From a virus: a stretch of 53,943 nucleotides of DNA. The notes under the pieces were generated by a model, which saw only the letters and a list, made by a program, of their open reading frames with translations, ran no database searches and was not told the DNA's origin. The position numbers were made by a program, and so were the translations under genes. Of this stretch, positions 11,434 through 25,246 are shown piece after piece; positions within the stretch are counted from its first letter, which is position 1; each line of letters begins with the position of its first letter. The stretch is from the IMG/VR virus record IMGVR_UViG_3300035670_000275, positions 1-53,943 of that record, one strand, 5' to 3'.

Positions 11434-12399
11434 TTACCCCAAGAAGAAATCTAGTGGAGCTGACTTAGTTCTTAATTCATCTTCTAGATCTTCAATCTCT
11501 TTCATAGCTTCCGAATACAATTTATCGCCATCTAAAGTTACGCCACCTGGCAATTGAATACCAGAGAACTTCTTAATGTTAATAGCCCACTGCTTTTTAA
11601 ATAATGCAGTTACATAATGTTTCAACCAAGGTTCATTGAACACTTTAGCAAAATCTGCAGGGTTGATGGCACGGTATCCTTGTAGTAAAACATAGTCGCC
11701 AATAATAATATCAGTTTCCCAGTTTACATCAAGGTATAAACGATTTTGCATACGGTTAAAACGATACAATGGGTGACCGTTTAATTCAAGGTCAAGCATC
11801 GCTAAGTGTGACATTACTGTTTTGTAATAAACGATAGATGTAGAAGTAAGGTCGTATAAGTCGTTTAAGCGAAGTTGATATTGTAGATCGAAAATATTTT
11901 TAGATGACGATGCTTGACCAATATTTAAAACCTTAGTAACACCATAAACGTAGTCTGGTGTTGTGATGTATTTTAGATCGTACTCTCCAAGGGTTACTGG
12001 ATTAGATGCTGCAAGAACAGCAGTATTACCAGAAGAACCGTTGATTGTTTCTCCAGCAACGAATGTGCCAGTTACGTTTCTGACATAGATGCTACCATTA
12101 ACTGGTTGGCTGCCAGACTCCTGACAAACTTGTGCTTTTGCTCCAGAAGTTGCGCCAGTAATATTTTCTGCAATAACAAAAGACGTACCATTATTAGATT
12201 GCAAGTTTAAAGTGGTTGCACGAATACGATGTTTCAGGTACATCTGCTCTACACCCTCGTAGTGGTATAGATTCCAATATTCCAGCGCTTCATCTAAACG
12301 ATCCTCTAATTGAGTATCGTCAACGTTAATTTCCAAAACAGGTGCACCCAGCGCTCGTAGTGCGTATTGTTTTAATTGATCTCTAGATGCAGTTGCCAT
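11434..12399 (-). CDS. 13: Neck protein gp13
   Basis: The 321-residue product matches T4 gp13 (309 residues) at both ends. The N-terminus has LKQYALRALGAPVLEINV, then a DRLDEALEYWNLYHYEGV segment. The C-terminus has IQLPGGVTLDGDKLYSEA and ends near FFLG. Residues about 63-135 carry a Gly/Thr/Ser-rich insertion (GATSGAKA, GTFVAGETINGSSGNTA) of the type often inserted in marine phage virion proteins. It forms the head-proximal neck ring. A late-promoter-like GATAAATA lies 26 bases upstream inside the end of the preceding gene. Confidence 0.9.
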   Translation of the reverse strand: MATASRDQLKQYALRALGAPVLEINVDDTQLEDRLDEALEYWNLYHYEGVEQMYLKHRIRATTLNLQSNNGTSFVIAENITGATSGAKAQVCQESGSQPVNGSIYVRNVTGTFVAGETINGSSGNTAVLAASNPVTLGEYDLKYITTPDYVYGVTKVLNIGQASSSKNIFDLQYQLRLNDLYDLTSTSIVYYKTVMSHLAMLDLELNGHPLYRFNRMQNRLYLDVNWETDIIIGDYVLLQGYRAINPADFAKVFNEPWLKHYVTALFKKQWAINIKKFSGIQLPGGVTLDGDKLYSEAMKEIEDLEDELRTKSAPLDFFLG

Positions 12400-12729: not shown

Positions 12730-13308
12730 TTAAACTTGATATTCTGTTATAATTAAAGTTGAAACACCAGCTTCATACGAATCTGCACCAGCGCTAGTTA
12801 CAGTTCTGTTAACATAAAAAGTTCTGGCAGTACCGTTAGATGATCTAATATGTAGTCTATATGTAGAAGCTGTTGATAAACTAGATTTATCAACAAACCT
12901 AAACGCTATATTATCTGGCGTTGATGATGTATCTGGATCGTAAAACTGCGCATAAACACCAGACCATCTATTACCAGTTGCTCCACTTGAATTAGTTGAA
13001 TCTGGTAATGGTACGTTATTTCTGGTTACAACAAAAACTACATCGTGGGAGTTACACTCACCATTAACCATATAATCTAATACAATTATGTTGCCTGCTT
13101 TCTTTGGCGTGTGAGTCAGAGTCAACAAAGCCATTTCAGTACCGTTACCAGAAACTGGCGCTGTGTATGTTGTTATGGTTCTACTAACTATTGTTGAAAC
13201 GCCAACTGGCGTTCCTGGATACCCCATATTTCCAGCAGTTATAATTCCATCTGGTAAACCACTAGCAGCTAACCCTGTAATTGTTCCGTTTCCTAATACT
13301 ATTGGCAT
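12730..13308 (-). CDS. Fibre-tip-like paralog 3 of 3
   Basis: A 192-residue protein, third in transcription order of a tandem triplet. All members begin with an M-x-I-V-x-G-x-x-T-ITG segment, have a GYPG motif near residue 30, SAPVSGNGT- or TAPVSGNGT-like and TPKKAGN motifs, a central GATGNRWSG, and a C-terminal AGADSYEAGVS stretch. The length, beta-rich composition and position after an S74 fibre suggest a trimeric fibre-tip or head-domain protein that could bind the host surface. The family is not one I can name. The stop is 9 bases before the next gene. Confidence 0.65.
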   Translation of the reverse strand: MPIVLGNGTITGLAASGLPDGIITAGNMGYPGTPVGVSTIVSRTITTYTAPVSGNGTEMALLTLTHTPKKAGNIIVLDYMVNGECNSHDVVFVVTRNNVPLPDSTNSSGATGNRWSGVYAQFYDPDTSSTPDNIAFRFVDKSSLSTASTYRLHIRSSNGTARTFYVNRTVTSAGADSYEAGVSTLIITEYQV

Positions 13309-13883
13309 TATACATATACCTCATGAGCTACGCCAGTTGAAACGCCAGCTTCGTAATTATCAGCTCCAGCGCTGGAGTATGGTCTATTTAAATAGTAAGT
13401 GTTTGCAGTACCATTGGATGATCTGATACAAATAGAATACGTTGTCGCTGTTGCTAACGAACTATTATCTACGAAATATATTGTGTCAACAACTGGCGTT
13501 GATGATGTGTTATTATCGTAGTTGTTAGTGACAATACCAGACCATCTATTGCCAGTTGCACCACTAACATTAGTTGCGCCAGCAAGCGGTGTGCCATTTC
13601 TAGTTATCGTATACACCGAGTTGTATCCAGCTTCATTATGAAGCATCCACTTAAGAATAATCTTGTTTCCAGCTTTCTTTGGCGTGATTGTTAAATTAAC
13701 TAAAGCGATAGCAGTACCGTTACCAGAAACTGGTGCACTATAACTGGCTTGTGTTCGTGTTTGAACATATACTGTATTGACAATGTTTCCAGGATAACCA
13801 ATTTCAGTCGCTGTAATTGTCCTGTCTGGCAAACCACCAGCAACTAAGCCTGTAATTGTTCCATTTCCTATTTCTAAAGCCAT
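13308..13883 (-). CDS. Fibre-tip-like paralog 2 of 3
   Basis: A 191-residue middle member of the triplet. It shares the ITG start, the GYPG motif, the TQASYSAPVSGNGT segment with the first copy, and the GATGNRWSG centre. It differs in the segment facing the first motif (MLHNEAGYNSVYTITRNG instead of the DTVLVLTRNN type) and has Tyr-rich ends. The differences lie between conserved blocks, as expected if variable loops contact a receptor. It overlaps both neighbours by one base (TAATG), so the three are translated in series. Confidence 0.65.
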   Translation of the reverse strand: MALEIGNGTITGLVAGGLPDRTITATEIGYPGNIVNTVYVQTRTQASYSAPVSGNGTAIALVNLTITPKKAGNKIILKWMLHNEAGYNSVYTITRNGTPLAGATNVSGATGNRWSGIVTNNYDNNTSSTPVVDTIYFVDNSSLATATTYSICIRSSNGTANTYYLNRPYSSAGADNYEAGVSTGVAHEVYV

Positions 13884-14464
13884 TATCTATGTATCTCCGT
13901 TAAAACACAACTTGAAACACCAGCTTCATACGAATCTGCACCAGCGCTAGTTACAGTTCTGTTGAGATATGCTGTACGAGCAGTTGCACCAGAAGCCCTG
14001 ACGTGTATCCTATATGTAGAAGCTGTTGAAAGGCTTGACTTATCAACAAATACAATTGTTACAGTGGTTGGCGTACTTGATTGATCACCATTTGATTCAT
14101 ATTGGTTTGTACCAATACCAGACCATCTATTGCCAGTTGCTCCACTTGAATTGGTTGAATCTGGTAATGGTACGTTATTTCTTGTTAGAACTAAAACAGT
14201 ATCCCAGTGCCATTCACCAGAAACTGTGAACTCACATATAACTACGTTTCCAGCTTTCTTTGGTGTAATCGTTGTTGTCAATAAAGCCATTTCAGTACCG
14301 TTACCAGAAACTGGTGCACTATAACTAGCTTGAGTTCGCGTTTGTTTTTGTACTACTTGTACAACTGCGCCAGGATAACCAATTTCAGGTTCAGTAATGA
14401 TACCTAATGGTAAACCACCTGCTGTAATACCAGTGATTGTTGTATCTCCGATTACAATCGCCAT
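13883..14464 (-). CDS. Fibre-tip-like paralog 1 of 3
   Basis: A 193-residue first member of the triplet, starting 2 bases after the stop of the S74 fibre gene. It has the common blocks: an IGDTTITG start, a GYPG motif, SAPVSGNGTEMALL, TPKKAGNVV, NNVPLPDSTNSSGATGNRWS in the middle and TSAGADSYEAGVS at the end. It is closest to paralog 3 in the middle and to paralog 2 near the N-terminus. The probable role is as an exchangeable distal fibre component; this is inferred from location and duplication only. Confidence 0.65.
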   Translation of the reverse strand: MAIVIGDTTITGITAGGLPLGIITEPEIGYPGAVVQVVQKQTRTQASYSAPVSGNGTEMALLTTTITPKKAGNVVICEFTVSGEWHWDTVLVLTRNNVPLPDSTNSSGATGNRWSGIGTNQYESNGDQSSTPTTVTIVFVDKSSLSTASTYRIHVRASGATARTAYLNRTVTSAGADSYEAGVSSCVLTEIHR

Positions 14465-14466
14465 GA

Positions 14467-15441
14467 TTAATTAACCTTCTTTTTAATTTCTTCTACTTGT
14501 ACAGATAGTTCTTTAATCGCTTCAACTAGTAGAGGTACAAGACGCTCATATTGAATTGTTAGATAATTCTCACCGCTTTTGCTATTTCCATCTTCGTCAA
14601 TATCAAATGGAGCTGGTTTGACTGCTTGTGGTTGTACGGCTTTAACATCTTGAGCATATAAACCAATTTGCTCTTCATAGTTGTTATAACCAAAATCTTC
14701 TGCAAGTTTATTTTGAGTATAGATAACACCAACTAAAGAATTAACTTTTTCTAGAGCATTTTCAATCTGAGAGACTTCATCTTTTAGTCGCTTGTCAGAA
14801 TAGTATGCTGTAATTGTATTTGTTGCTCTTATTTGTCCTGCAGTGCCAGATGCAGCTGTACCAACGCCAATAGAACCAAACTGGTAGTTTCCAGCAGTGT
14901 CTAAACGAGCGATCGGTAAAGTACCAGAACCGATATATCCTGCATTAACATCTGTAATTGGAATAGTGATGTTTGAGGTGCCGTCAAAAGAAGTAGCAGT
15001 ACCTGTTGCCCCAGTACCGATAGCAATAGTTCTAGCAGTTTGTAATTTAGTTGCGTTGCCAGCAATAACAGAAGATTGATCTAGCCATGTTGGTGCGCCA
15101 GTACCACTAGATCTAAGAAGTTGACCTACAGATCCTGCGGCTGAATGCCCTGTTGTATTTACCGCTGTTTGATATGGTACACTACCAGCAACTCCACCAT
15201 TAATATTATTTGCTTGGGTAGCAGTTCCTGATAAAGAAGCACTAATAGTACCTGCGATAAAGTTACCAGATGCATCTCGGCGAACGGCTTTATTCGCAGT
15301 GTTTGTACTAACTGCATCTGCAGTTTCTAGCTTATCTGTATTCAGGTTAATAAAATTGGTATCAATCTCAGTGTTGGAGAGTGGACTATTCTTTACTGTC
15401 GCTCCACCACCTGATGTCACCCTTGTTGTTATTGCCGCCAT
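14467..15441 (-). CDS. Tail fibre with C-terminal S74 intramolecular chaperone
   Basis: A 324-residue fibre. The N-terminal part has an x-NTEIDTNF-x-NLN attachment-type segment (residues 23-34) and a repetitive Gly/Thr/Ala-rich shaft. From about residue 213 it carries a peptidase S74 domain, the endosialidase-type intramolecular chaperone that helps the fibre trimerise and then cuts itself off. The key motif SDKRLK is at 215-220, with nucleophile Ser215 and the dyad Lys220 five residues later, so cleavage is expected before Ser215. The domain ends in a heptad-like coiled coil (VEEIKKKVN). It follows the modification cassette and precedes the fibre-tip triplet. Confidence 0.88.
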   Translation of the reverse strand: MAAITTRVTSGGGATVKNSPLSNTEIDTNFINLNTDKLETADAVSTNTANKAVRRDASGNFIAGTISASLSGTATQANNINGGVAGSVPYQTAVNTTGHSAAGSVGQLLRSSGTGAPTWLDQSSVIAGNATKLQTARTIAIGTGATGTATSFDGTSNITIPITDVNAGYIGSGTLPIARLDTAGNYQFGSIGVGTAASGTAGQIRATNTITAYYSDKRLKDEVSQIENALEKVNSLVGVIYTQNKLAEDFGYNNYEEQIGLYAQDVKAVQPQAVKPAPFDIDEDGNSKSGENYLTIQYERLVPLLVEAIKELSVQVEEIKKKVN

Positions 15442-15473: not shown

Positions 15474-16193
15474 TTATTTAGCTAAAAAAGATTCCATGTA
15501 TTCGTCATATGTTGGAATAAAACCACCCTCATATGATTTTAACTGTTTTTGTAGGAATTCTTTAACTTGTTTTTCTCTGATATCCACATAAAACCTTATC
15601 ATATACATTGGTTTATCGCTGTAATTAAAGGCATTATGGTAGTGGTAACTATTAAAAACGTATAGTCTACCGTTCTCGTATTGTGAATCGTATTGTGAAA
15701 TTGGTGTTGTATGGTCAGCTAGACGATACTCCATAAAATTTATTACACTATATTTTGAGCCTTCTGGTATAGATAAAGGTAACTGGAATACAGAAATCCA
15801 GTCAGGCTGACCAGCTTCGGACATATGGCCATGCCATCCAACAGAGCATCCTGGTTTAATATTCTCAAACCTAGCTAACAATTTCCCACCACCCATAGAT
15901 TCTATAATGCTTCTAAGATATGGGCACTTCTCAATAGCTGGAGATGGTTTAAAATCTCCAGTCCATGGTTCTTCTGGGTTAGAAACAGCCGACCCGTCTA
16001 TACTATAAAGAGCCACGCTATCCCAATTATTATCAACGTCATGTATCGGCATGAACTCGCCAAACCTAAATCCGCTTTTGAATGGAGATAGATCGTATGG
16101 TAAATTCAATAGTTCATTTAACACCCTATCGGCATCAAAATATACATCAGTTGGTAAATGGGCGATATCGTTTAACTTATTTAATGTATTCAC
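15474..16193 (-). CDS. Aspartyl/asparaginyl beta-hydroxylase-like 2-oxoglutarate oxygenase A
   Basis: A 239-residue protein. It has a WHGH motif (His121, His123), a strand of the form FQLPLSIPEGSKYSVI, and a distal HYHN (His184, His186) followed by Arg200 in MIRF. This is the arrangement of the cupin-fold aspartyl/asparaginyl beta-hydroxylase family, which binds Fe(II) through histidines and 2-oxoglutarate through the distal Arg. Such enzymes hydroxylate amino-acid side chains or small molecules. It is paralogous to the gene directly upstream, overlaps it by 17 bases, and is the last gene of the modification cassette. The substrate is unknown; candidates are the Cys/His/Ser-tailed protein or fibre residues. 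Confidence 0.75.
   Translation of the reverse strand: MNTLNKLNDIAHLPTDVYFDADRVLNELLNLPYDLSPFKSGFRFGEFMPIHDVDNNWDSVALYSIDGSAVSNPEEPWTGDFKPSPAIEKCPYLRSIIESMGGGKLLARFENIKPGCSVGWHGHMSEAGQPDWISVFQLPLSIPEGSKYSVINFMEYRLADHTTPISQYDSQYENGRLYVFNSYHYHNAFNYSDKPMYMIRFYVDIREKQVKEFLQKQLKSYEGGFIPTYDEYMESFLAK
15475..15482 (-). promoter_or_regulatory. Weak late-promoter-like site before the S74 fibre
   Basis: The minus strand reads GCTAAATA, six of eight bases of the late consensus, 34 bases before the fibre start. It coincides with the last codons of the preceding oxygenase gene, so the evidence is weak. Confidence 0.2.
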
Positions 16194-16890
16194 CTGTATA
16201 TTCCTTCACTGCTCGTTCAACCATATCATACACATTATCATCTCTTAAGTCTGCAAAAAATCTTATGGTTAACCTTGGTGTTGTTACATTGTGATTGAAA
16301 ACATTATGGTAATGATATGCGTTAAAAATAACTGGTGTTCCTGGTTCATATGAAGATTCATATACACGTGGCGCACCATTTGAAAAATCGTTTGTTCTAT
16401 AATCTTTATTTGATATTACAGAGTATTTAAAACCTTCAGGGATGGTTATCGGGACTTGTACAATCATATGGGTTTCTGGGTGATATAACTCAAAAACATG
16501 ATTATGCCAGCCCATAACAGACATCGGCATAAGTTCTTCAACTCTACACAACGCTTTGCCTGCCCCAAGGGAATCAATAACCTCATAGGTATAGGGCATA
16601 AATTCTCTCAAACCAGTCTCTTGAAATTTACCCCATATTCTTTCTAGCTCTCCTGGTCCAGCACCTTCCATCCTATCACACATCATCTCGCCATTATAAC
16701 TATACAGCGATATGTTATTCCACTGACTCTTATCGTGTCCATGGTTGGATTGCATAGTAGCTTCGTATGGAAAAAGAGGGAATGGACAATTTCTAACCTC
16801 TTCTTCAATACGTTTAGGGTCATACTGAAACAAGAGAGGTAGGTGGGGGATATCCCTAACTAGTTCAGCCAATTTCAATGGATTTCGCAT
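16177..16890 (-). CDS. Aspartyl/asparaginyl beta-hydroxylase-like 2-oxoglutarate oxygenase B
   Basis: A 237-residue paralog of the downstream gene. The matching elements are GWHNH (His129, His131), VPITIPEGFKYSVIS, and FNAYHYHN (His193, His195) followed by Arg210 in TIRFFADLR. Both paralogs keep the Fe(II) and 2-oxoglutarate residues, so both should be active and may act on different positions or substrates. The start overlaps the end of the B12-type radical SAM gene by 26 bases. The longer PYEATMQSNHGHDKSQWNN region is similar in layout to paralog A, which supports one duplication event. Confidence 0.75.
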   Translation of the reverse strand: MRNPLKLAELVRDIPHLPLLFQYDPKRIEEEVRNCPFPLFPYEATMQSNHGHDKSQWNNISLYSYNGEMMCDRMEGAGPGELERIWGKFQETGLREFMPYTYEVIDSLGAGKALCRVEELMPMSVMGWHNHVFELYHPETHMIVQVPITIPEGFKYSVISNKDYRTNDFSNGAPRVYESSYEPGTPVIFNAYHYHNVFNHNVTTPRLTIRFFADLRDDNVYDMVERAVKEYTGEYIK

Positions 16891-18799
16891 TTCTCTGCCT
16901 TATAAAATTTTCATAAAAATTAAGTATCCTATACCCTGTATCAAAGTTCTTAGATTTTGATGTTTCTATATCTGAAATATTTAGTAAGTAAGAATCTACA
17001 TAATCTTTGGAAACAACCATCCCCAAATCATCACACGTTTTTAATAAAAGATCAATATAATGGTCGTGAAATGTGAAAATGCAAGTTCTTAAAAGATATG
17101 TTACTTCTACAACCTCATCCGTGTATGGTAGTTTATAATATTTAAACTCCGATATATGTTTTTGTCTTCCGTGAACAATGTCACTTATCTCAGCTACTAA
17201 TTCGCGCATGGCATATACATATTCGTTATTTTCAACTTCCAATATATTTTTATAAAGTTGTTTAAAAAAACAGGATGGCTTTTCTATATTACCGAGTTTA
17301 ATATTCTCGTCAATAAGTTGTGGTAATTTAAAAATATATTCACCGTCTCGATCAGTTGCTTCTTTTTTAGTTTTTATCCAACTTTGTATTACCCAATGAT
17401 TCATAAACATAAACTCAACATAATCATCTTTCGTGTAACCATCAGCTTTAACCACAATTTCAACATCTGATTTATATAATGGGTCTTCTGTTATATGATA
17501 TCTTTTAGTTCTGTCATAATCGTCAAACTGTTGGCTGCCTAAAGATCTAGATTTACTAACAGATAATCTAATAGTTTCTATGTTAAATTTTTTCTTGTAT
17601 TCTGGATCGTATGCTGGAGAGTCTGGGAGTAGCATCCACATGTATCGTTCTAATGTATAACCGTGATCGTATTGAACGTCAACTTCATCATAAAATAGTT
17701 CTCTGGTGTGTCCAGGCAATCCCATAATAAATTCTAAGTCTGCTCTAACCTGATATTGTTTGTAAAGATATTTTGCATATTCAATATCAGAGTCCATTGG
17801 GACATTTTTACGTTTGATGTTAGCTAATACAGTTTCGTCTAAGGATTGCAAACTTATTTTGTATCTCTCAGTTAAGCCAGATCTCGCTAGAGGTTCAAAC
17901 GTCTTCCATTTCTTTTCTGGCGATGATTTAGTCATTCCATATATTTCAACGTATGTTGGTAAATCAAAAATATTTTTCATGTTTTCCAAATACTCTGTTA
18001 CCTCAGCATCTTCTTTATAGATGCCAAGATTAGCGTCTAATATTTGAACATAGTTGATACCAAACAATGGAATTTGATCTAAATCTTCATATACTAGCTC
18101 TTGAGGTTTACGGATAACTTTTCCACCGATGCCTCCACCCCATTCACAGAACACACATTCATATGGGCAACCTCTAGTGAGTTCTAATGGTAGGGTTAAT
18201 CCTAAGTTGTTTTTATCCGCTATTTCTTTACATTTAAAAACAATATCTTCGTTACCTTTAATAATACCACCTGGAAATTTAAACTCGCGTTTGTTTGGAG
18301 TTTTACCGCGACCTGTTCTATATACAGAAAACGATACTTCTTTCCAGTTGATCTTATCACCCTCAACCATCTGGTCAAGCATATCATTTATAAACATTTC
18401 CCCATAACTTGTTGGGTCGCAAATAGCGTCTACGAATCTATGTTTAAAAAACCAATCAATATTATTATGCGTGACGTTTAAATGTGGACCACCAAGAATA
18501 ATAATTCTATTTGGGTTACTTTTCTTTAAATCTTCCGCCAAGGACATGACAGCTATATGATTCCATAAGAAACAAGAAAACGCATAAACATCAGCGTTTT
18601 GATTTTCATAATATTCTAAAATATCATTATAACGCATGTTATCTATATCAAGTAACGGTTCCATCCAAGTTACATTATTTGGATATTTACCATTCTTTGT
18701 ATAATAATTTTTAAAACCAAGCCAATGCACTGGAATGCGCACAACTTCAGTTTTTAAATCTATATTAAGATATGATATTTTGACTTGCTTTGTTGCCAT
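16865..18799 (-). CDS. B12-binding-type radical SAM enzyme
   Basis: A 644-residue protein. The N-terminal 150 residues look like a B12-binding Rossmann domain (VYAFSCFLWNH at 71-81, IILGGPHLN at 100-108). The radical SAM barrel has CPYECVFC with Cys211, Cys215 and Cys218 (C-x3-C-x2-C) binding the 4Fe-4S cluster, followed by a WGGGIGGK segment typical of B12-class enzymes. The last 250 residues are a helical extension I cannot assign. Enzymes of this class methylate or otherwise rearrange unreactive carbons in peptides and natural products. The classic D-x-H-x-x-G cobalamin ligand motif is not apparent, so B12 binding is likely but not certain. It overlaps the upstream SPASM gene by 35 bases. 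Confidence 0.8.
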   Translation of the reverse strand: MATKQVKISYLNIDLKTEVVRIPVHWLGFKNYYTKNGKYPNNVTWMEPLLDIDNMRYNDILEYYENQNADVYAFSCFLWNHIAVMSLAEDLKKSNPNRIIILGGPHLNVTHNNIDWFFKHRFVDAICDPTSYGEMFINDMLDQMVEGDKINWKEVSFSVYRTGRGKTPNKREFKFPGGIIKGNEDIVFKCKEIADKNNLGLTLPLELTRGCPYECVFCEWGGGIGGKVIRKPQELVYEDLDQIPLFGINYVQILDANLGIYKEDAEVTEYLENMKNIFDLPTYVEIYGMTKSSPEKKWKTFEPLARSGLTERYKISLQSLDETVLANIKRKNVPMDSDIEYAKYLYKQYQVRADLEFIMGLPGHTRELFYDEVDVQYDHGYTLERYMWMLLPDSPAYDPEYKKKFNIETIRLSVSKSRSLGSQQFDDYDRTKRYHITEDPLYKSDVEIVVKADGYTKDDYVEFMFMNHWVIQSWIKTKKEATDRDGEYIFKLPQLIDENIKLGNIEKPSCFFKQLYKNILEVENNEYVYAMRELVAEISDIVHGRQKHISEFKYYKLPYTDEVVEVTYLLRTCIFTFHDHYIDLLLKTCDDLGMVVSKDYVDSYLLNISDIETSKSKNFDTGYRILNFYENFIRQRNAKSIEIG

Positions 18800-19817
18800 T
18801 AATAGCCTCGATATAATCTACTTCACTGTTTATTTTCATAATTTGCGAAGAAAGTTTTTTCATTCTAACGCAATGTTCTTCAACCATGTTATTGGTTTTT
18901 AAGTCTTTTATAGTTTTCTTACACCCATTGCATATATTAAACATTTCACACCCAATACATTCTTCTTTCATTGAGTAGAGTTCAACTGCGTTTTGTAATG
19001 GAGTTTCGAACCCACCCTGTTTTACTTCTTTTACAAAGTTGATTGGGTATTCTTTATCATCTCCCATTGCACCGCATGAATAATAATCACCTTCTGGGTT
19101 TAATGCACGGATATGGTCATCACAATCTCTTGCTTGTGGGCAAATATTAGAAATATTTTTTAACCGAGTCATCATCTGCTTGGTATTAAACTCCCAAGGA
19201 TACAACCCTCTATTATATATCTCCACATATGTCTCGTATATTTTACTTAACAGATATGGTTTATCTAACTCACCAGAAGCCATAGCATAGTTCAATTTAC
19301 ACTGAACGTCCATTTTCTTTGCCAGTTCAACGTGTTTAATTGCATGCCTCTCGTTTTCCTCGGATATAACAGCAATAAACCCTGGTCGGTAACCAACACG
19401 TTCTAGGAATAAATCACTAACTGCCCAAAAATCTTTTTCGGTGTAAACCCTTCCGTTTGTTATTAATCTACCAAGCCCATACTGAAAACTTGTAGTCACA
19501 CCAACTCTTGGGTGTTTAAATAATGGAGTCCATAGGTCTGGCTTTTTGTAGAATGCCCAAAGATTTGTTGTAAAACCTATTGTTGTCTTTAGATTATGTT
19601 CATCTAGATAATCAATAATCTTCCAGTAATAATCTGGCTTCATCATCAATGGGTCACCACCATTGACAATAATAGTATTTGTGTTTGGGAATCTTGTGAG
19701 AAAGTCGAAGATATATTGGTGGTCTAATGTAGACGCTTTATCTTCGACTAACTTAGTTGATGAACAGAACGTGCATTTAAAATTACACAGTTCCGTCGGT
19801 TTGATTATCAGTTCCAT
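18765..19817 (-). CDS. Radical SAM/SPASM maturase-like enzyme 2
   Basis: A 350-residue radical SAM protein with CNFKCTFC at Cys11, Cys15 and Cys18, and the GGDP SAM-binding motif at 53-56. It has a Cys-rich C-terminal SPASM-type domain (CPQARDCDDH, then YYSCG, then CIGCEMFNICNGC, then a final Cys) that would hold auxiliary iron-sulfur clusters. SPASM enzymes commonly modify ribosomal peptides, for example with thioether or carbon-carbon crosslinks. It overlaps the unknown gene upstream by 35 bases and the B12-type enzyme downstream by 35 bases, so it is translated within the cassette. The precursor lies 2.5 kb upstream in the same operon. Confidence 0.85.
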   Translation of the reverse strand: MELIIKPTELCNFKCTFCSSTKLVEDKASTLDHQYIFDFLTRFPNTNTIIVNGGDPLMMKPDYYWKIIDYLDEHNLKTTIGFTTNLWAFYKKPDLWTPLFKHPRVGVTTSFQYGLGRLITNGRVYTEKDFWAVSDLFLERVGYRPGFIAVISEENERHAIKHVELAKKMDVQCKLNYAMASGELDKPYLLSKIYETYVEIYNRGLYPWEFNTKQMMTRLKNISNICPQARDCDDHIRALNPEGDYYSCGAMGDDKEYPINFVKEVKQGGFETPLQNAVELYSMKEECIGCEMFNICNGCKKTIKDLKTNNMVEEHCVRMKKLSSQIMKINSEVDYIEAINGNKASQNIIS

Positions 19818-20751
19818 AATTTATCTTAAAAGTTTCCAACCAAGTGGAGTTGTCAATATTAATATACAAATCTCTAATTAAAAGAGGGTTAATGGAATCA
19901 TAGTTTTTTGGTGTTGGAAAACCTTGAGATATTTGTTTGGCTATTTTCTTTGAAGTATCTTTATTCAAAAGAAAATTCTTCAAAGACTCTCTACTAGTAT
20001 TATCTGGAATTGTAATGACGTTGGTTATTTCATCATTTTTACGAGATATAAATGTCAAAGAAGAAACCTGATTTATTTCTGAAAAAGGATTATCTGAATC
20101 TAATATATTATTTACATTATCTTTCAAATACTGTTCATCCTGAAACTTATCAGTTATATCACCATCAATAAACAATGGTAACAGATTCCATGCTTCCACT
20201 TCAGATAAATGATTTTTCTTAGTTGGTTTAAAAAACTTAGTAAAGCGATCTAAACAATAATCTAAGAAACTATCATCGCCTAAGAAATAATTAACAATAG
20301 CAAGTTCAATTCTAACTTCGCATGTTTTAGCAAATTCAGAAAAAGTTGTTGTTAGTTTTAATTTCTCTGGTAACTTATATTCTTTAAAAAGAAAAATGCT
20401 GTTATCTAAAACTGGAGTAATTCTAAAATTATGTTTATCTCTGTCGTAATCATATAACTTTTGCAAACCTTCTTTGCTTAGCAAAGCACCAAAGAAATAT
20501 GAATATATCTTTTGAAAACTCACATCATCCGCATAAATTATAACTTTCTGACCAGCAAGGTTCTCGTGAATATCAATAAACAGTTGTTCAATTTTTGCAG
20601 GGGTGATTGAAGAGAAGTTTTTGTACACATCAAAAGAAAATTGGAAAAAAGATTCCTCAGAGTAATCAAAATCTCCAACCCATACATGTTTAGAAACTTC
20701 ATCAATAGTTTCAGGAATAGCTAAAAAACAATTATCGAAAAGATAAATCAT
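19783..20751 (-). CDS. Unknown cassette protein, paralog of the upstream gene
   Basis: A 322-residue protein I do not recognise. It begins MIYLFDNCFLAIP and later has KVIIYADDVSFQKIYSYFF (residues about 70-88). Both segments match the upstream protein (MFHLFNSCYLSP and KFVIYADPEHMVNIYSRF), so the two share an N-terminal domain of about 100 residues; the remainders have diverged. The N-terminal Cys8 is conserved between them. It has no signal peptide or membrane segment and is rich in Phe, Asp, Lys and Asn. The position between maturase genes suggests a role in substrate recognition or as a partner of the radical SAM enzymes, but nothing in the sequence proves this. Confidence 0.65.
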   Translation of the reverse strand: MIYLFDNCFLAIPETIDEVSKHVWVGDFDYSEESFFQFSFDVYKNFSSITPAKIEQLFIDIHENLAGQKVIIYADDVSFQKIYSYFFGALLSKEGLQKLYDYDRDKHNFRITPVLDNSIFLFKEYKLPEKLKLTTTFSEFAKTCEVRIELAIVNYFLGDDSFLDYCLDRFTKFFKPTKKNHLSEVEAWNLLPLFIDGDITDKFQDEQYLKDNVNNILDSDNPFSEINQVSSLTFISRKNDEITNVITIPDNTSRESLKNFLLNKDTSKKIAKQISQGFPTPKNYDSINPLLIRDLYINIDNSTWLETFKINYGTDNQTDGTV

Positions 20752-21620
20752 GCTAATATCTCCAAATAATCGACAACCGTTTTATCTAAACCCATCCCCC
20801 ATTTTATGATTAATGGGTCATATTTGTCTTTATATGTTAGCGGTGTAAACAATAATAAGAAACCAGGATTGTCAATTAGTATGTTTACGTTTTTAGTTTT
20901 ATAATAATTGTATATCATTGGGTCTGCTGGGATATAAACATCTTTTCTTAAATGTAGATACAACTCAGCCATATTTTCTATTGTATTTTTATTATAGAAT
21001 TTATTATCTGTCACCCATCCAGTATAACCTTCAGCTACAATATGTTTCATTCTACCGAAATTAAAATACTCATATACATAAGAATCAACAACTGATCTAA
21101 TTTGAGAATAATCTTTTTTGACTATTCTCCATTCAATACCAGAATGTTTTTTAACCCACTGTTTGTCAATGTCAAAACCTTTTAAATCCGATGGCATGGT
21201 TTTAACTTGCTGAAAAGCATTAATAAAACCTCTGATGATTTCTTTGACACCTTCGTGTTTTAGAGTGTTGTATTTTATGATTAATTTAGCTGCAGCAAGC
21301 CTCATTAGCTGAATATAATATTTTTCATTAATATTACTGACTTGAGTTTTAATAAACCTAGAATAGATATTTACCATGTGTTCTGGGTCAGCGTATATCA
21401 CAAACTTCTCTTTATTATTTAGAGAAGGGAAGAATAAATCATCGTTGATAAACTTTTCAGAAGTCTCATATCTGCCGATTAACTCAGCATGTTCTTTATT
21501 TGAATTATAAAAACATGTACCACCATAAGAATGGTAATTTGAACCAACTACTACAAAATTTGAAGAAGGTTCAAATAAAACATCAGGTGATAGGTAGCAT
21601 GAATTAAACAGATGAAACAT
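20748..21620 (-). CDS. Unknown cassette protein, paralog of the downstream gene
   Basis: A 290-residue protein of unknown family. Its N-terminal MFHLFNSCYLSP and KFVIYADPEHMVNIYSRF blocks are shared with the next gene, including the N-terminal Cys8. The C-terminal half contains YIPADPMIYNYYKTKNVNI and LLFTPLTYKDKYDP segments without a family I can name. It overlaps the next gene by 4 bases (ATGA) and the previous one by 17. It may form a heterodimer with its paralog. Low GC and high Lys/Asn/Tyr content set it apart from the structural genes outside the cassette. Confidence 0.65.
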   Translation of the reverse strand: MFHLFNSCYLSPDVLFEPSSNFVVVGSNYHSYGGTCFYNSNKEHAELIGRYETSEKFINDDLFFPSLNNKEKFVIYADPEHMVNIYSRFIKTQVSNINEKYYIQLMRLAAAKLIIKYNTLKHEGVKEIIRGFINAFQQVKTMPSDLKGFDIDKQWVKKHSGIEWRIVKKDYSQIRSVVDSYVYEYFNFGRMKHIVAEGYTGWVTDNKFYNKNTIENMAELYLHLRKDVYIPADPMIYNYYKTKNVNILIDNPGFLLLFTPLTYKDKYDPLIIKWGMGLDKTVVDYLEILA

Positions 21621-22362
21621 TAGATGCCTCTTTTTCTAAATCTGACAGTTGGTATGGAGTCAAAAACTCATCCAATATAAGATCTAAGATTGGGAAAATT
21701 AAACAATCATTATTTAAGTAGTTTAACAAAATGTTACCAGAATAAATTGGTTTATCATAGTAGTATTCATAATATAATAAATCATCAAAATTTGGAATTG
21801 ATGCTAAGTAATTCTCGTTAAACACTGGGTCTTGAAATAGATTAACCCAAGTCTTACCAACTGCAGTTGATTCTTTAACAATATTCGGAGTTATGTAATC
21901 ACCCAATTCTTGCTTATAACGGTTAATGTTCTTAATGGCATATAGAATAACCCCATCAATAATACCTTCAAGATCTTTAAAAAGCTGAACATCTTTTTGA
22001 ATCAATAGATCAATTTCATTATCTTTGATAATCTGATCGGAGAAGAATACACCTTCAGTTTCGTTCACTAACTCTAAATCATACATTTTGATTCTGAAAA
22101 GAATCTTGATAATGCTTCTTCTAAACTGAACGAGATCTAATGTTGTCTGACTCTTAATATACTCAATTAAAAGTTCACACCTTTCTTCAAATGAAACACC
22201 TTCTAGATTAATTTGAAAATCTAATTTTTTCAAATTACTCAAATACAGTAAAAAGTGCTTCCCTTTTAGTTTACTATTTTTATAATCTATTTCAATGATA
22301 TAATGATTTTCATCCGTGATGAATCTCTTTAATGTATCAACGTCAAATGGTATAGCGTGCAT
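21604..22362 (-). CDS. Unknown cassette protein directly after the precursor
   Basis: A 252-residue protein starting MHAIPFDVDTLKRF. I chose the ATG at 22362 because it shares one base with the precursor stop (TAATG). A reading from 22404 would be the out-of-frame shadow of the repeat-coding DNA. The protein is mainly helical by composition, rich in Leu, Ile, Asp and Tyr, with a DDLLYYEYYYDKPIYSGN segment near residues 205-222. I recognise no domain. The tight coupling to the precursor gene suggests a job in the same pathway, such as binding or protecting the precursor. That is inference. Confidence 0.65.
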   Translation of the reverse strand: MHAIPFDVDTLKRFITDENHYIIEIDYKNSKLKGKHFLLYLSNLKKLDFQINLEGVSFEERCELLIEYIKSQTTLDLVQFRRSIIKILFRIKMYDLELVNETEGVFFSDQIIKDNEIDLLIQKDVQLFKDLEGIIDGVILYAIKNINRYKQELGDYITPNIVKESTAVGKTWVNLFQDPVFNENYLASIPNFDDLLYYEYYYDKPIYSGNILLNYLNNDCLIFPILDLILDEFLTPYQLSDLEKEASNVSSV

Positions 22363-22946
22363 TAAATGCTCCCATGGCAAGAAGAATGACAAGAAGAATG
22401 GCAATAACGCTCTTGAAAATCCAAAGTAGCATTTCTATTGGTGGAGATTGCTGTGGATAAAGCTGCAACGAAAGCATCTAGGTCTGCAGCAGATATGGTA
22501 TTATTACCTGAAATTGTTGGAGCGGTCACAGCATTCATAGATACTGAATATGTCGCTTGTTTTAGATTTGTCACGTTTGTTGTATCATAGAATGGCGTTG
22601 TAGCAATAGTTCCGTTTGTATTAAAAAACTTTCTTAGCCTAGCTTTTCTGACCTTTGACAGAGTGACAGCATATGCTCTGAATTGAGTTATAATGGTAGA
22701 AGCTGTGACGTTTGTGTCAGTAATAGCAGCTGCAAAATCTGTTGTTAAACCAGTGGCAGTACCTTCTACTGGGAATGTTCCTGTGACATTCCCATAGTTG
22801 TTCCAATAATAAGTCCTACCAGTTTGTGCGTTTTGGAATGGGTGAGTTGTTGTTGACCATACAATTCCAGCATTGTATGTGTCCCTAATACTGTCCATCT
22901 GAGCAGTAATAGATGCCTTTGTAATATCACTTCCAGCTGTTGTCAT
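22362..22946 (-). CDS. Putative modified-peptide precursor with Cys-His-Ser C-terminal repeats
   Basis: A 194-residue protein. Residues 1-178 are Thr/Ala/Asn-rich without an obvious family, similar in composition to virion fibre proteins. Residues 182-193 form three tandem four-residue units, C-H-S-S, C-H-S-S and C-H-G-S, ending with Ile194. Each unit contains a His-x-Ser triplet after a Cys. A short repetitive Cys/His/Ser tail, with a radical SAM/SPASM gene overlapping directly upstream (ATGA), is the signature of a RiPP precursor with a C-terminal core. It resembles in idea the His-Xaa-Ser repeat systems. It differs from short leader peptides in having a long N-terminal domain, which may be structural. 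Modification is inferred, not shown. Confidence 0.7.
   Translation of the reverse strand: MTTAGSDITKASITAQMDSIRDTYNAGIVWSTTTHPFQNAQTGRTYYWNNYGNVTGTFPVEGTATGLTTDFAAAITDTNVTASTIITQFRAYAVTLSKVRKARLRKFFNTNGTIATTPFYDTTNVTNLKQATYSVSMNAVTAPTISGNNTISAADLDAFVAALSTAISTNRNATLDFQERYCHSSCHSSCHGSI
22368..22403 (-). repeat. Three 12-base tandem units coding C-H-x-S
   Basis: The last codons of the precursor read TGCCATTCTTCT, TGTCATTCTTCT and TGCCATGGGAGC on the minus strand. The first two differ at one base and the third diverges in its second half. The arrangement suggests growth by unit duplication. Confidence 0.85.
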
Positions 22947-24007
22947 TTGTTAACCTTTATATACCTTAGTAATTTTTTAGGAGACGGGCAAATATCACCT
23001 TGCCATTCTAGTTGATGGCAATCGCTATTACAATTCTCAAAAACATCACATTCAAAACACCTATGATCCCTTGCTATCTCGCAACTTATATTATTTAGTC
23101 TTTTCGGTGAAGTTAATAATTTACTAATATCCATTGAGATATCGCCGAAGGAGTTATCTACTGCAGAGTTGGGGCAACCAGAGATGCTACCATCCGCATT
23201 AATTGTAAAGATCTTCTGTTCGCAATCCCTACATCTTATGCCACCATGAACCCCATACAGGCTTGCTTCTTTGATATTATTTATTAAAACGTCGTTATAT
23301 TCTGGTTTAATAGTCTCATACAACTTATATAAGTTGAAGAGCCATTCAGAAACTTCAGCGTTTGTTGGAAATATCTCTGTATTTTTTATAGCATTCCCAC
23401 CAGCAGTTAGACGTTCAAATTGTACATGATTAACCCCTAGAGTATTCAACCACTCCACTAGTTCTAGTTGGTTCATTTCTATGATATTTCTATTTAAAGA
23501 TATATTCAATGTTATATTACAACCTTCTCCAACTAACGTGGCCAGATTTTTCCTCCACAACGATTCTTGTTTTTGATTTTCAAATCTAATATCTTTGTCC
23601 CAACTTGTACAGAAACCATTCTTTAGGACTGTTTTGAAGAAACTAATGTGTTCATCAGTTAGAGTATAAACGAGGTTAGTTGAACACGACCACGATATAT
23701 TTTTCCAAAGCGGGGATACTCTTTCCCAAACATATATCATATCTTCAATTGGAGCAAGGAATGGTTCTCCACCGTGAAATATTATTGAACCACCCTGAAA
23801 AGATGGAAAATCCTCATAAAGTCTGTGAAACCACTCCACAGTTTTATGAGGATCGAAATATATCTTCTTACCGTTAATTCCGTTTGTAAAGCAGTGCTTA
23901 CAATTTAACTGACATGTTTCAGTTGTTTTAAGATAAACTACTAATTCTTTTGGTGCAAAACTGGAAGATAATTTATTTTTGTAAAAAAATACTGGTGATT
24001 CTTTCAT
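22943..24007 (-). CDS. Radical SAM/SPASM maturase-like enzyme 1
   Basis: A 354-residue enzyme. CQLNCKHC supplies Cys32, Cys36 and Cys39 for the SAM-binding cluster, and FHGGEP (77-82) is the SAM-contacting motif. The C-terminal half has CRDCEQKIF, then a GCPNSA segment, and finally CFECDVFENCNSDC with a late Cys. This is a SPASM/twitch-like set of cysteines for auxiliary clusters. Such enzymes usually modify a peptide encoded next door. Here the stop overlaps the start of the Cys/His/Ser-tailed gene (ATGA), the best possible partner. It is the first gene of the cassette, 21 bases after the G2-like fibre gene. No clear ribosome binding site is seen. Confidence 0.88.
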   Translation of the reverse strand: MKESPVFFYKNKLSSSFAPKELVVYLKTTETCQLNCKHCFTNGINGKKIYFDPHKTVEWFHRLYEDFPSFQGGSIIFHGGEPFLAPIEDMIYVWERVSPLWKNISWSCSTNLVYTLTDEHISFFKTVLKNGFCTSWDKDIRFENQKQESLWRKNLATLVGEGCNITLNISLNRNIIEMNQLELVEWLNTLGVNHVQFERLTAGGNAIKNTEIFPTNAEVSEWLFNLYKLYETIKPEYNDVLINNIKEASLYGVHGGIRCRDCEQKIFTINADGSISGCPNSAVDNSFGDISMDISKLLTSPKRLNNISCEIARDHRCFECDVFENCNSDCHQLEWQGDICPSPKKLLRYIKVNK

Positions 24008-24028: not shown

Positions 24029-25246
24029 TTAAAGAATAACGCACTCTACAAGTTTTAAACCTTCTTTCAAGTTTGTCTCAAGAGCAATACCAAAAGAGTT
24101 AGTTGTATCTCCAGCGATACCATGACCGCCATCATCGCAAATTAATGGTTGACCCTTTCTAATTGGTCCAACAACTTTAACTGGCACACGACCACGCAAT
24201 GCGATAGCTTGACCATCAGCTTCATCGTTCATAATGAATGCTGGGTTTGTAGAAACAACACCTAGGACACGTTGGTTCGTTGTGTGGCTGAGAGTAGCTT
24301 CTGCTGCAGTATCATCAGTTGATACCACAACTACTGTTCCAGGAGAATACTCATTATCTGTTGTATATTTTTCTGCCAAGTCAGCGTATCTAGCAGAAGT
24401 TGAAGTACCATATATTACAGCAAATCTATTAGTTGATTGACCAATATCGCCAGTACCATTAGTTCCAGATTTTTGAATAGATGAAACAGTTGGGTTTGTA
24501 ACAAGAGCAATTGTTGGGTTTCCAGCAGTACCATCAGCGTTTGTTATTGTGATGGAGTTGCCAGCTGCAACCGAGCGAACTGCTACTGTGTTATCAGTTT
24601 TTCTAACAACAATACCGTTGCCAGAAGAACCAGAAACGTTGGCTAGAATAGCGGAATATGCTTGGATGTCTGTACCAATTCTTAGACCTAATTTATCCCT
24701 AGCATCAAACGCTGTTGAAGCACCAGTACCACCATCAGCAATTGCTAAATCAGTAATACCCGTGATTGAACCGCCAGTAATATCAACTAAATCTGATTGC
24801 TGTGTTGAAATAGTACCAAGACCAAGGTTTGTTCTTGCGTTAGACGCTGTTACCGCACCAGTGCCACCGTGTTCAATTTGAACAACACCGTTAACGTTAG
24901 AAGCGTTACCAGTAACAGTTCCTGTTAAGTTACCAACAACGTTACCTAGAACATCACCAATGTGTTGTCCGTAAAATCTAACTGAATATAAATCGCCGAG
25001 ACCATCTCTAACAGCTACTGTGTCTGGCAAAGAATTGATACTTGGGTAATTGCCATGAACTTTATCTGCATCTAATGTAGAACCGCTGCCTCCGTGACCA
25101 TCTAATAGTTGAAGAATATTGGTGAAGTTGAATGCGACTGAATCTAGTTTTGTTCCAACTTCTCTATTGATATTATCGAAGTTTTGATCAACTTCTTCAA
25201 TTGTTAGTGGGCGTTCTTTATCAAGTCTTAAGTTAATAGCTGCCAT
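24029..25246 (-). CDS. Tail fibre with G2-like autoprocessing C-terminal domain
   Basis: A 405-residue fibre protein. It begins with an [16 protein letters not shown] attachment-type helix (12-27) and continues with GG-T-G-A-x-T-A-x-x-A-R-x-x-L-G-L repeats common in fibre shafts. The C-terminal region from about residue 285 ([20 protein letters not shown], then [11 protein letters not shown]-type strands) resembles the G2-type intramolecular chaperone/autoprotease domains of phage fibres. This assignment is moderate. The gene overlaps the small protein upstream by 14 bases. It lies directly before the modification cassette, as the S74 fibre lies directly after it. Confidence 0.75.

What the first reader, a model, noticed from the sequence alone, without database searches (positions are those of the whole stretch)
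22362..24007. Phage protein with a Cys-His-x-Ser repeat tail beside a radical SAM/SPASM maturase
The 194-residue product ends in three tandem units C-H-S-S, C-H-S-S, C-H-G-S. A radical SAM/SPASM gene overlaps it directly upstream by ATGA. This combination is the usual architecture of a RiPP precursor and its maturase. It has not, to my knowledge, been described as part of a phage fibre locus. His-Xaa-Ser (Hxs) systems of bacteria also pair HxS-repeat proteins with radical SAM enzymes, but here each HxS follows a Cys. The long N-terminal part looks structural, so this could be a modified virion protein.
Basis: partly seen in the sequence, partly recalled or inferred. Interest (0 to 1): 0.93.

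Follow-up and report, generated by a model that had tools for sequence, protein, structure and literature searches.

The report
Cys-His-tailed phage protein with radical-SAM cassette
Hundreds of environmental and cultured phages, and some predatory bacteria, encode a fibre-associated protein that ends in a strictly conserved Cys-His-rich tail next to a battery of radical-SAM enzymes that probably modify that tail; such a chemically modified adhesin would be a new kind of phage or predator surface part.

Summary
The 194-aa product ends CHSSCHSSCHGSI and overlaps a radical SAM/SPASM gene by ATGA. It heads a tightly overlapping operon behind a tail-fibre gene: CHxS protein, adaptor "c2", two unknowns, a second radical SAM, a B12-radical SAM and two hydroxylase-like proteins. 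In IMG/VR, 361 stretches encode relatives of the maturase; all 69 examined loci long enough to show it carry a protein ending in (CHxS)2-5, although the N-terminal domains diverge to about 20% identity. Tail codons show pN/pS 0.08 against 0.46 for the body. Cultured jumbo phages (Atu_ph07, Phosso, FLC6, SURPRISE13, pPa_SNUABM_DT01) have the same cassette. Atu_ph07's version is gp170, the edge of an MS-defined virion-protein cluster. Chromosomal copies exist in Bdellovibrionota predators beside prepilin-like fibres with the phage S74 chaperone. No paper found describes the tail.

Best explanation: a folded, fibre-associated structural protein whose C-terminal Cys/His tail is modified in place by a multi-radical-SAM cassette and displayed for host or prey contact. 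Shown: pairing, conservation, context. Inferred: the modification itself, its chemistry, virion display, receptor role. It is RiPP-like, but not an Hxs member.

The parts
22362..22946 (-). CHxS-tail protein (194 aa): folded N-terminal domain plus C-terminal Cys-His tail; presumed substrate
   Evidence: ORF; AlphaFold pLDDT 84, pTM 0.80, with the tail at pLDDT 51-64; C182, H183, C186, H187 and H191 invariant in 46-47 homologues
22365..22403 (-). Tail codons CHSSCHSSCHGSI (13 residues)
   Evidence: Sequence; strong purifying selection, pN/pS 0.078 against 0.46 in the body
22943..24007 (-). rSAM1: radical SAM/SPASM enzyme, presumed tail maturase
   Evidence: phrog_1802 9e-53; Pfam Radical_SAM 3.4e-5, below its cut-off; nearest curated models DarE, PapB and DynA, all far below cut-off; invariant CxxxCxxC and SPASM cysteines; 361 relatives in IMG/VR
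21604..22362 (-). c2 (phrog_20767-like), conserved partner, possibly an adaptor; likely start ATG at 22362, overlapping the stop codon of the CHxS gene (TAATG)
   Evidence: phrog_20767 7e-24; present in 45 of 45 cassettes with 7.5 kb or more downstream; model pLDDT 88 without a PDB relative
20748..21620 (-). c18, unknown cassette protein (M-x-L-F family)
   Evidence: Conserved in 9 of 9 I/L-ended cassettes; weak similarity to cluster 7 of the R-x-R-R cassettes
19783..20751 (-). c19, unknown cassette protein (M-x-L-F family)
   Evidence: Conserved in 9 of 9 I/L-ended cassettes
18765..19817 (-). rSAM3: second radical SAM/SPASM-like enzyme (CNFKCTFCSST)
   Evidence: phrog_1802 6.6e-54; Radical_SAM 2.2e-8; in 44 of 45 complete cassettes
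16865..18799 (-). Cobalamin-binding radical SAM enzyme (KedN5-like region), possible C-methyltransferase
   Evidence: Radical_SAM 1.9e-8, B12-binding 3.3e-7 (below its cut-off), KedN5 family 3.9e-39 but below its cut-off; in 21 of 45 cassettes
16177..16890 (-). Asp/Asn beta-hydroxylase-like cassette protein (first of two paralogues)
   Evidence: Cluster 16; a relative hits Asp_Arg_Hydrox at 4e-4, below its cut-off; HMM 391 or 331 bits for the two paralogues
15474..16193 (-). Asp/Asn beta-hydroxylase-like cassette protein (second paralogue)
   Evidence: As above
24029..25246 (-). Tail-fibre gene directly upstream (C-terminal domain with RYADLAEKY)
   Evidence: Fibre PHROGs (phrog_19602 1.4e-11 and others); such a domain lies within 4 kb upstream of 98 of 135 CHxS genes, against 26% of all ORFs in the same loci

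Best explanation
The 22362-22946 product is a folded, fibre-associated structural protein. Its C-terminal Cys-His tail is post-translationally modified in place by the adjacent cassette: the core enzymes rSAM1 and rSAM3 with partner c2, plus accessory enzymes that differ between lineages. The tail is not released as a small peptide; it stays on the protein and is displayed on the tail fibre or baseplate, where it makes chemical or metal-mediated contact with the host cell surface. The chromosomal versions in Bdellovibrionota would do the same on a pilin-anchored, S74-chaperoned fibre that touches prey. Shown: motif, selection, near-obligate pairing, cassette content, fibre context, chromosomal copies. 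Inferred, with my probabilities: tail modified by rSAM1/rSAM3 (0.8); protein in the virion (0.7); tail used in surface contact (0.45). The exact chemistry (thioether cross-links at Cys, His modification, or a metal site) is unknown.
For: (1) Pairing: all 69 IMG/VR loci whose contig runs past rSAM1 encode the tail. The motif-only DNA scan returned tails at the extreme C-terminus. Of 39 records with no rSAM1 near the tail, or too little sequence to tell, 30 have it elsewhere on the contig, and the nine without are all under 39 kb. (2) N-terminal domains diverge to about 20% identity while C182, H183, C186, H187 and H191 stay invariant; tail pN/pS 0.078. (3) Core set rSAM1 + c2 + rSAM3 is nearly universal; cassettes add cobalamin radical SAM, 2OG-Fe(II) oxygenases and cupins, a protein- or peptide-tailoring set. 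(4) The clade that lost the R-x-R-R end lacks rSAM9, rSAM4, cupin and c14 (0 of 9, against 35, 30, 29 and 23 of 36). (5) rSAM1 is closest to RiPP maturases (DarE, PapB; CteB 5wgg). (6) Fibre genes lie upstream (window fibre); Atu_ph07 gp170 sits at the edge of the MS virion cluster CDS 170-215 (PMC6102473). (7) Predator chromosomes carry the cassette beside fibres with both N_methyl and S74 domains, in one case next to an rRNA operon of a 4.15-Mb contig.
Against: No mass-spectrometric evidence of modification; the gp170 virion detection is inferred from a cluster boundary, since the supplementary table could not be read. The CHxS protein has no structural match to a known fibre tip. Several enzymes, e.g. 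glycosyltransferase- and dihydrofolate-reductase-like neighbours in some loci, could serve another pathway. The BALO fibre-adjacent protein '...GRHWVKIK' is only marginally similar to the phage fibre domain.
Confidence: 0.6

Rival explanations
1. A diffusible RiPP: the large N-terminal domain acts as a leader or carrier, the modified tail is cut off and acts as a toxin, signal or superinfection-exclusion molecule.
For: Precursor-plus-SPASM-enzyme architecture with several tailoring enzymes.
Against: No dedicated leader peptidase or exporter turned up among the recurrent cassette families. The 'leader' is a folded domain of 125-300 aa, larger than usual RiPP leaders (general knowledge). Fibre context and tandem copies directly after fibre genes.
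Confidence: 0.12
2. The Cys/His tail is an unmodified metal site (iron, copper or zinc) on the virion, as in metal-binding phage tips; the radical SAM enzymes modify something else, e.g. host envelope or another virion protein.
For: Cys and His are the invariant residues. Predator variants keep Cys/His but not the spacing (YCHSNHCSHSNHGSRGRR, YCHGNFPPPCHGSRGRR, NYCHTNVPTPPPCHASRGRR).
Against: Near-obligate genomic coupling of tail and rSAM1. Loss of the R-x-R-R end coincides with loss of specific enzymes (few independent events).
Confidence: 0.2
3. The tail is a scaffold on which a small molecule or cofactor is built and then released (carrier-peptide logic), with the protein recycled.
For: Large and variable enzyme complement: up to six radical SAMs plus oxygenases in one cassette; conserved R-x-R-R end.
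Against: Tandem CHxS copies behind fibre genes and the inferred virion location of gp170.
Confidence: 0.08

Closest known systems
RiPPs matured by radical SAM/SPASM enzymes (ranthipeptides such as PapB and CteB; darobactin DarE)
   Same: Adjacent precursor and SPASM enzyme; Cys-rich C-terminal core; rSAM1 falls nearest these maturases.
   Different: Folded 125-300 aa 'leader', no recurrent peptidase or exporter seen, up to six radical SAM enzymes, located in phage fibre loci; scores far below the curated cut-offs.
His-Xaa-Ser (Hxs) systems
   Same: H-x-S units and more than one radical SAM protein; L039/L040 tails end CHSSCHSSHSS-RNRR with true HxS spacing.
   Different: Each H-x-S normally follows Cys with period 4. 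In the NCBIfam scan of the window proteins no HxsA or HxsD hit was listed and no HxsB among those shown; HxsC matched rSAM3 only weakly (29.6 bits against a cut-off of 267.9).
Radical SAM cassettes noted in phage host-recognition islands (pelagimyophages, PMC7029224; a T4-like TARA genome with 12 radical SAM genes, PMC5332604)
   Same: Same genomic setting: radical SAM cassettes in the fibre/host-recognition region.
   Different: The passages read name no substrate and no CHxS protein; one paper treats them as Fe-S or auxiliary genes.
Bdellovibrio MAT fibres (PMC10769870)
   Same: Predator surface fibres built from phage-like parts with the S74 chaperone.
   Different: The CHxS-linked fibres begin with a type IV prepilin motif and sit beside a radical SAM cassette; the terms 'radical SAM' and 'Bacteriovorax' do not occur in that paper.
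PHROGs phrog_35144, phrog_1802, phrog_20767, phrog_20737
   Same: They contain members of this precursor, the radical SAMs, c2 and c14.
   Different: Annotated 'unknown function' or only 'radical SAM domain'; not linked into a system.

Membership tests
RiPP (ribosomally made, post-translationally modified peptide) | Ribosomal precursor encoded with its modifying enzyme | tested here: met
   ATGA overlap in the window; same pairing in 69 of 69 testable loci
RiPP (ribosomally made, post-translationally modified peptide) | Precursor is chemically modified | not testable with these tools
   Needs mass spectrometry
RiPP (ribosomally made, post-translationally modified peptide) | Short leader removed by a protease, product exported | tested here: not met
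   Folded N-terminal domain; no recurrent peptidase or exporter family in the Pfam scans of cassette clusters
Radical SAM/SPASM enzymes | CxxxCxxC and the SPASM cysteine pattern | tested here: met
   C32/C36/C39 and C262, C278, C317, C320, C326, C330, C340 invariant; TIGR04085 24.3 bits against a cut-off of 27, slightly below
Ranthipeptides (PapB/CteB type) | Maturase reaches the family cut-off | tested here: not met
   PapB 40.1 bits against a cut-off of 340
Ranthipeptides (PapB/CteB type) | Thioether to a beta or gamma carbon | not testable with these tools
   Chemistry unknown
Hxs system | HxsA/HxsB/HxsC/HxsD proteins at family cut-offs | tested here: not met
   No HxsA or HxsD hit, no HxsB among hits shown; HxsC 29.6 bits against 267.9
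Phage virion/fibre protein | Encoded in a fibre/baseplate module | tested here: met
   Window: fibre, baseplate, hub and sheath genes around it; fibre domain upstream of 98 of 135 CHxS genes
Phage virion/fibre protein | Protein detected in virions | tested here: inconclusive
   Atu_ph07 MS cluster CDS 170-215 begins at the CHxS gene gp170 (PMC6102473); protein list not readable
MAT fibres of Bdellovibrio | S74 chaperone on a trimeric fibre, signal peptide followed by a conserved beta domain | tested here: inconclusive
   S74 present in neighbouring predator fibres, but with an N_methyl prepilin start; the beta domain was not tested

The most novel reading that the evidence does not exclude
Phages and predatory bacteria share a chemically modified adhesin module: a fibre-tip protein whose Cys-His tail is turned by a multi-radical-SAM cassette into a non-proteinogenic, perhaps metal-binding or cross-linked structure for gripping target cells. 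It would be the first RiPP-like modification of a phage structural protein, exchanged more than once between phages and Bdellovibrionota.
Probability: 0.45. Interest if true: 0.96.

Novelty: new variant of a known kind. Interest (0 to 1): 0.9.

Why it matters
Radical SAM chemistry is known for secreted peptides and cofactors, not for virion parts. A conserved tail with its own enzyme battery in several hundred marine, freshwater and soil phage contigs, and in cultivable jumbo phages, makes it directly testable whether phages build chemically modified receptor-binding surfaces. It would also offer a function for the long-noted radical SAM cassettes in phage host-recognition islands, connect phage fibres with predator prey-contact fibres, and open a large unexplored set of peptide-modifying enzymes.

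Tried and rejected
Chance or DNA-level tandem repeat: rejected (synonymous codon variation). Hxs membership: rejected. Known phage fibre tip by fold: no PDB match for the CHxS domain or c2; sequence profiles also gave nothing useful. Named-phage tblastn with the CHxS protein, a 24-aa consensus tail or a type-B protein returned nothing; the link to named phages came only through rSAM1 and c2. Ralstonia phage RP31/RSF1 records are not in the collection, although an IMG/VR contig of 222,888 bp (L111) matches phrog_35144 at 5e-129 and is probably RSF1. Literature: searches on jumbo phages, cyanophages, RiPPs, SPASM, fibres and HxsA and a string search for the tail found no description. Promoter/terminator scan uninformative.

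Full report
Observation. The two genes are as described. 22362-22946 (-) gives a 194-residue protein ending RYCHSSCHSSCHGSI; 22943-24007 (-) gives a radical SAM protein overlapping it by ATGA. The next gene, c2, probably starts with ATG at 22362, overlapping the stop codon of the CHxS gene, and the genes down to 15474 overlap in the same way, which suggests one operon behind the tail-fibre gene at 24029-25246. The window is a 53,943-base virus record with T4-like baseplate, hub, sheath and fibre genes.

The family. Named jumbo phages carry the same cassette: Agrobacterium phage Atu_ph07, Sinorhizobium phage Phosso, Burkholderia phages FLC6 and SURPRISE13, Pseudomonas phage pPa_SNUABM_DT01. Tails read DFCHSSCHASCHNSRSRR, DYCHTSCHASCHSSRSRR, TVCHSSCHTSCHGSRGRR (both Burkholderia phages) and TICHTSCHTSCHSARGRR, while the whole proteins are only 21-27% identical to the window protein. 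An IMG/VR scan with the rSAM1 alignment found 361 encoding stretches; of the 80 loci kept, 69 show the tail and the other 11 are cut by the contig end before it. Two arrangements occur: type A, one protein of about 140-310 aa usually next to rSAM1; and type B, two tandem proteins of about 130 aa, directly after a fibre gene in the loci read in detail, with rSAM1, rSAM3 and rSAM4 several kilobases away. Of 39 records in which rSAM1 was not near the tail or the fragment was too short to tell, 30 carry it elsewhere on the contig; the nine without are 5.6-38.7 kb long.

Selection. In 24 close relatives the 13 tail codons have pN/pS 0.078, against 0.46 for the body and 0.44 for the 20 columns just before the tail. 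Over 46-47 diverse homologues, three His and the first two Cys are invariant. Unit number varies: mostly three, five in L046, two Cys with three His in L039 and L040.

Cassette. rSAM1 has intact radical SAM and SPASM cysteines. rSAM1, c2 and rSAM3 are in 45, 45 and 44 of 45 cassettes with at least 7.5 kb downstream. Cassettes ending R-x-R-R usually have rSAM9 (35 of 36), rSAM4 (30), a cupin (29), c14 (23) and 2OG-Fe(II) oxygenases; the I/L-ended clade that includes the window has none of the first four, but has c18, c19, a cobalamin radical SAM and Asp-hydroxylase-like proteins in 9 of 9. This is one clade and therefore perhaps one evolutionary event, but it hints that the missing enzymes act on, or depend on, the R-x-R-R end.

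Structure. The CHxS protein is predicted as a folded alpha/beta domain (pLDDT 84, pTM 0.80) with a low-confidence tail. Foldseek finds no PDB match but matches the Atu_ph07 (1.3e-6) and probable pPa_SNUABM_DT01 (178 aa, 3e-8) counterparts, which supports one domain family despite low sequence identity. c2 is confidently folded without a PDB relative.

Virion location. In the Atu_ph07 study virion proteins were identified by ESI-MS/MS and said to lie mainly in CDS 31-76, 170-215 and 284-329 (PMC6102473). gp215 is the major head protein in both paper and record, so the numbering holds, and gp170 is the CHxS protein. That gp170 itself was detected is an inference from its place at the cluster edge.

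Predatory bacteria. A genome scan found related cassettes in MAGs of Bacteriovoracaceae, Halobacteriovoraceae and Bdellovibrionaceae, and 18 of 369 genomes of the phylum match rSAM1 at E <= 1e-50; not every such match was checked for a CHxS gene. One lies at about 504 kb of a 4.15-Mb contig, next to tRNA, 16S and 23S genes, so it is chromosomal. Tails include SCHSSCHSSCHGSRGRR, ACHASCHSSCHGARGRR, VCHSACHDNCHSSRGRR and altered forms YCHGNFPPPCHGSRGRR, NYCHTNVPTPPPCHASRGRR and YCHSNHCSHSNHGSRGRR. Neighbours include a fibre with Peptidase_S74 and, in L253, L254 and L257, a prepilin methylation motif above its cut-off. The rSAM1 tree puts predator sequences in at least two places: a separate clade of eight, and others among phage sequences (quick method, some long branches). 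So exchange probably happened more than once; direction is not resolved.

Interpretation. The evidence fits a structural protein whose tail is the substrate of the cassette and is presented on a fibre. What the enzymes do is not known. SPASM enzymes of the nearest families make thioether or C-C cross-links (general knowledge), and the cobalamin radical SAM could methylate. The Cys/His content would also suit a metal site, and the predator variants keep Cys/His but not spacing. I therefore keep modification, metal binding and receptor contact as separate claims with separate probabilities.

Novelty. Radical SAM cassettes in phage host-recognition islands have been noticed (PMC7029224, PMC5332604), but no paper I could search links them to a substrate or mentions the tail. 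The library lacks preprints and most subscription journals, so prior description elsewhere cannot be excluded. I rate it a new variant of a known kind (radical-SAM-matured ribosomal product) because the modification is still unproven; if shown on virions, it would be a new kind of phage part.

Noticed in passing
L211, L213, L217, L218, L221, L253-L257: Chromosomal radical SAM + Cys-His-tail cassettes in Bdellovibrionota; in most, a pilin-like or S74-chaperoned fibre gene and a conserved protein ending GRHWVKIK lie beside them; a candidate prey-contact module.
   Followed up: partly
L138, L151 (one 151-kb record, G384): One phage contig carries both type A and type B CHxS genes and two rSAM1 copies (29125 and 58769).
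   Followed up: no
L039, L040 (about 11700-11775): Tails CHSACHSSHSSRNRR and CHSSCHSSHSSRNRR, in which the third Cys is lost and HxS spacing appears; a possible bridge to Hxs-type repeats.
   Followed up: no
L004 8986-17968: pPa_SNUABM_DT01 has six radical SAM-annotated genes within about 9 kb plus 2OG-Fe(II) oxygenase genes in the cassette.
   Followed up: no
window 12730-14464: Three tandem paralogues of about 192 aa, just downstream of the fibre gene at 14467-15441.
   Followed up: no
window 4014-6704: Tail sheath protein of 896 aa matches the sheath profile at both ends, with a large central insertion that matches domains of other virion proteins.
   Followed up: no
BFVD A0A8S5USJ7, A0A8S5USJ8, A0A8S5USV2 (Myoviridae sp. 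ctijX18): Three larger proteins (504-660 aa) of one phage match the CHxS domain by fold (E 1e-4 to 2e-3); the domain may also occur fused in bigger virion proteins.
   Followed up: no
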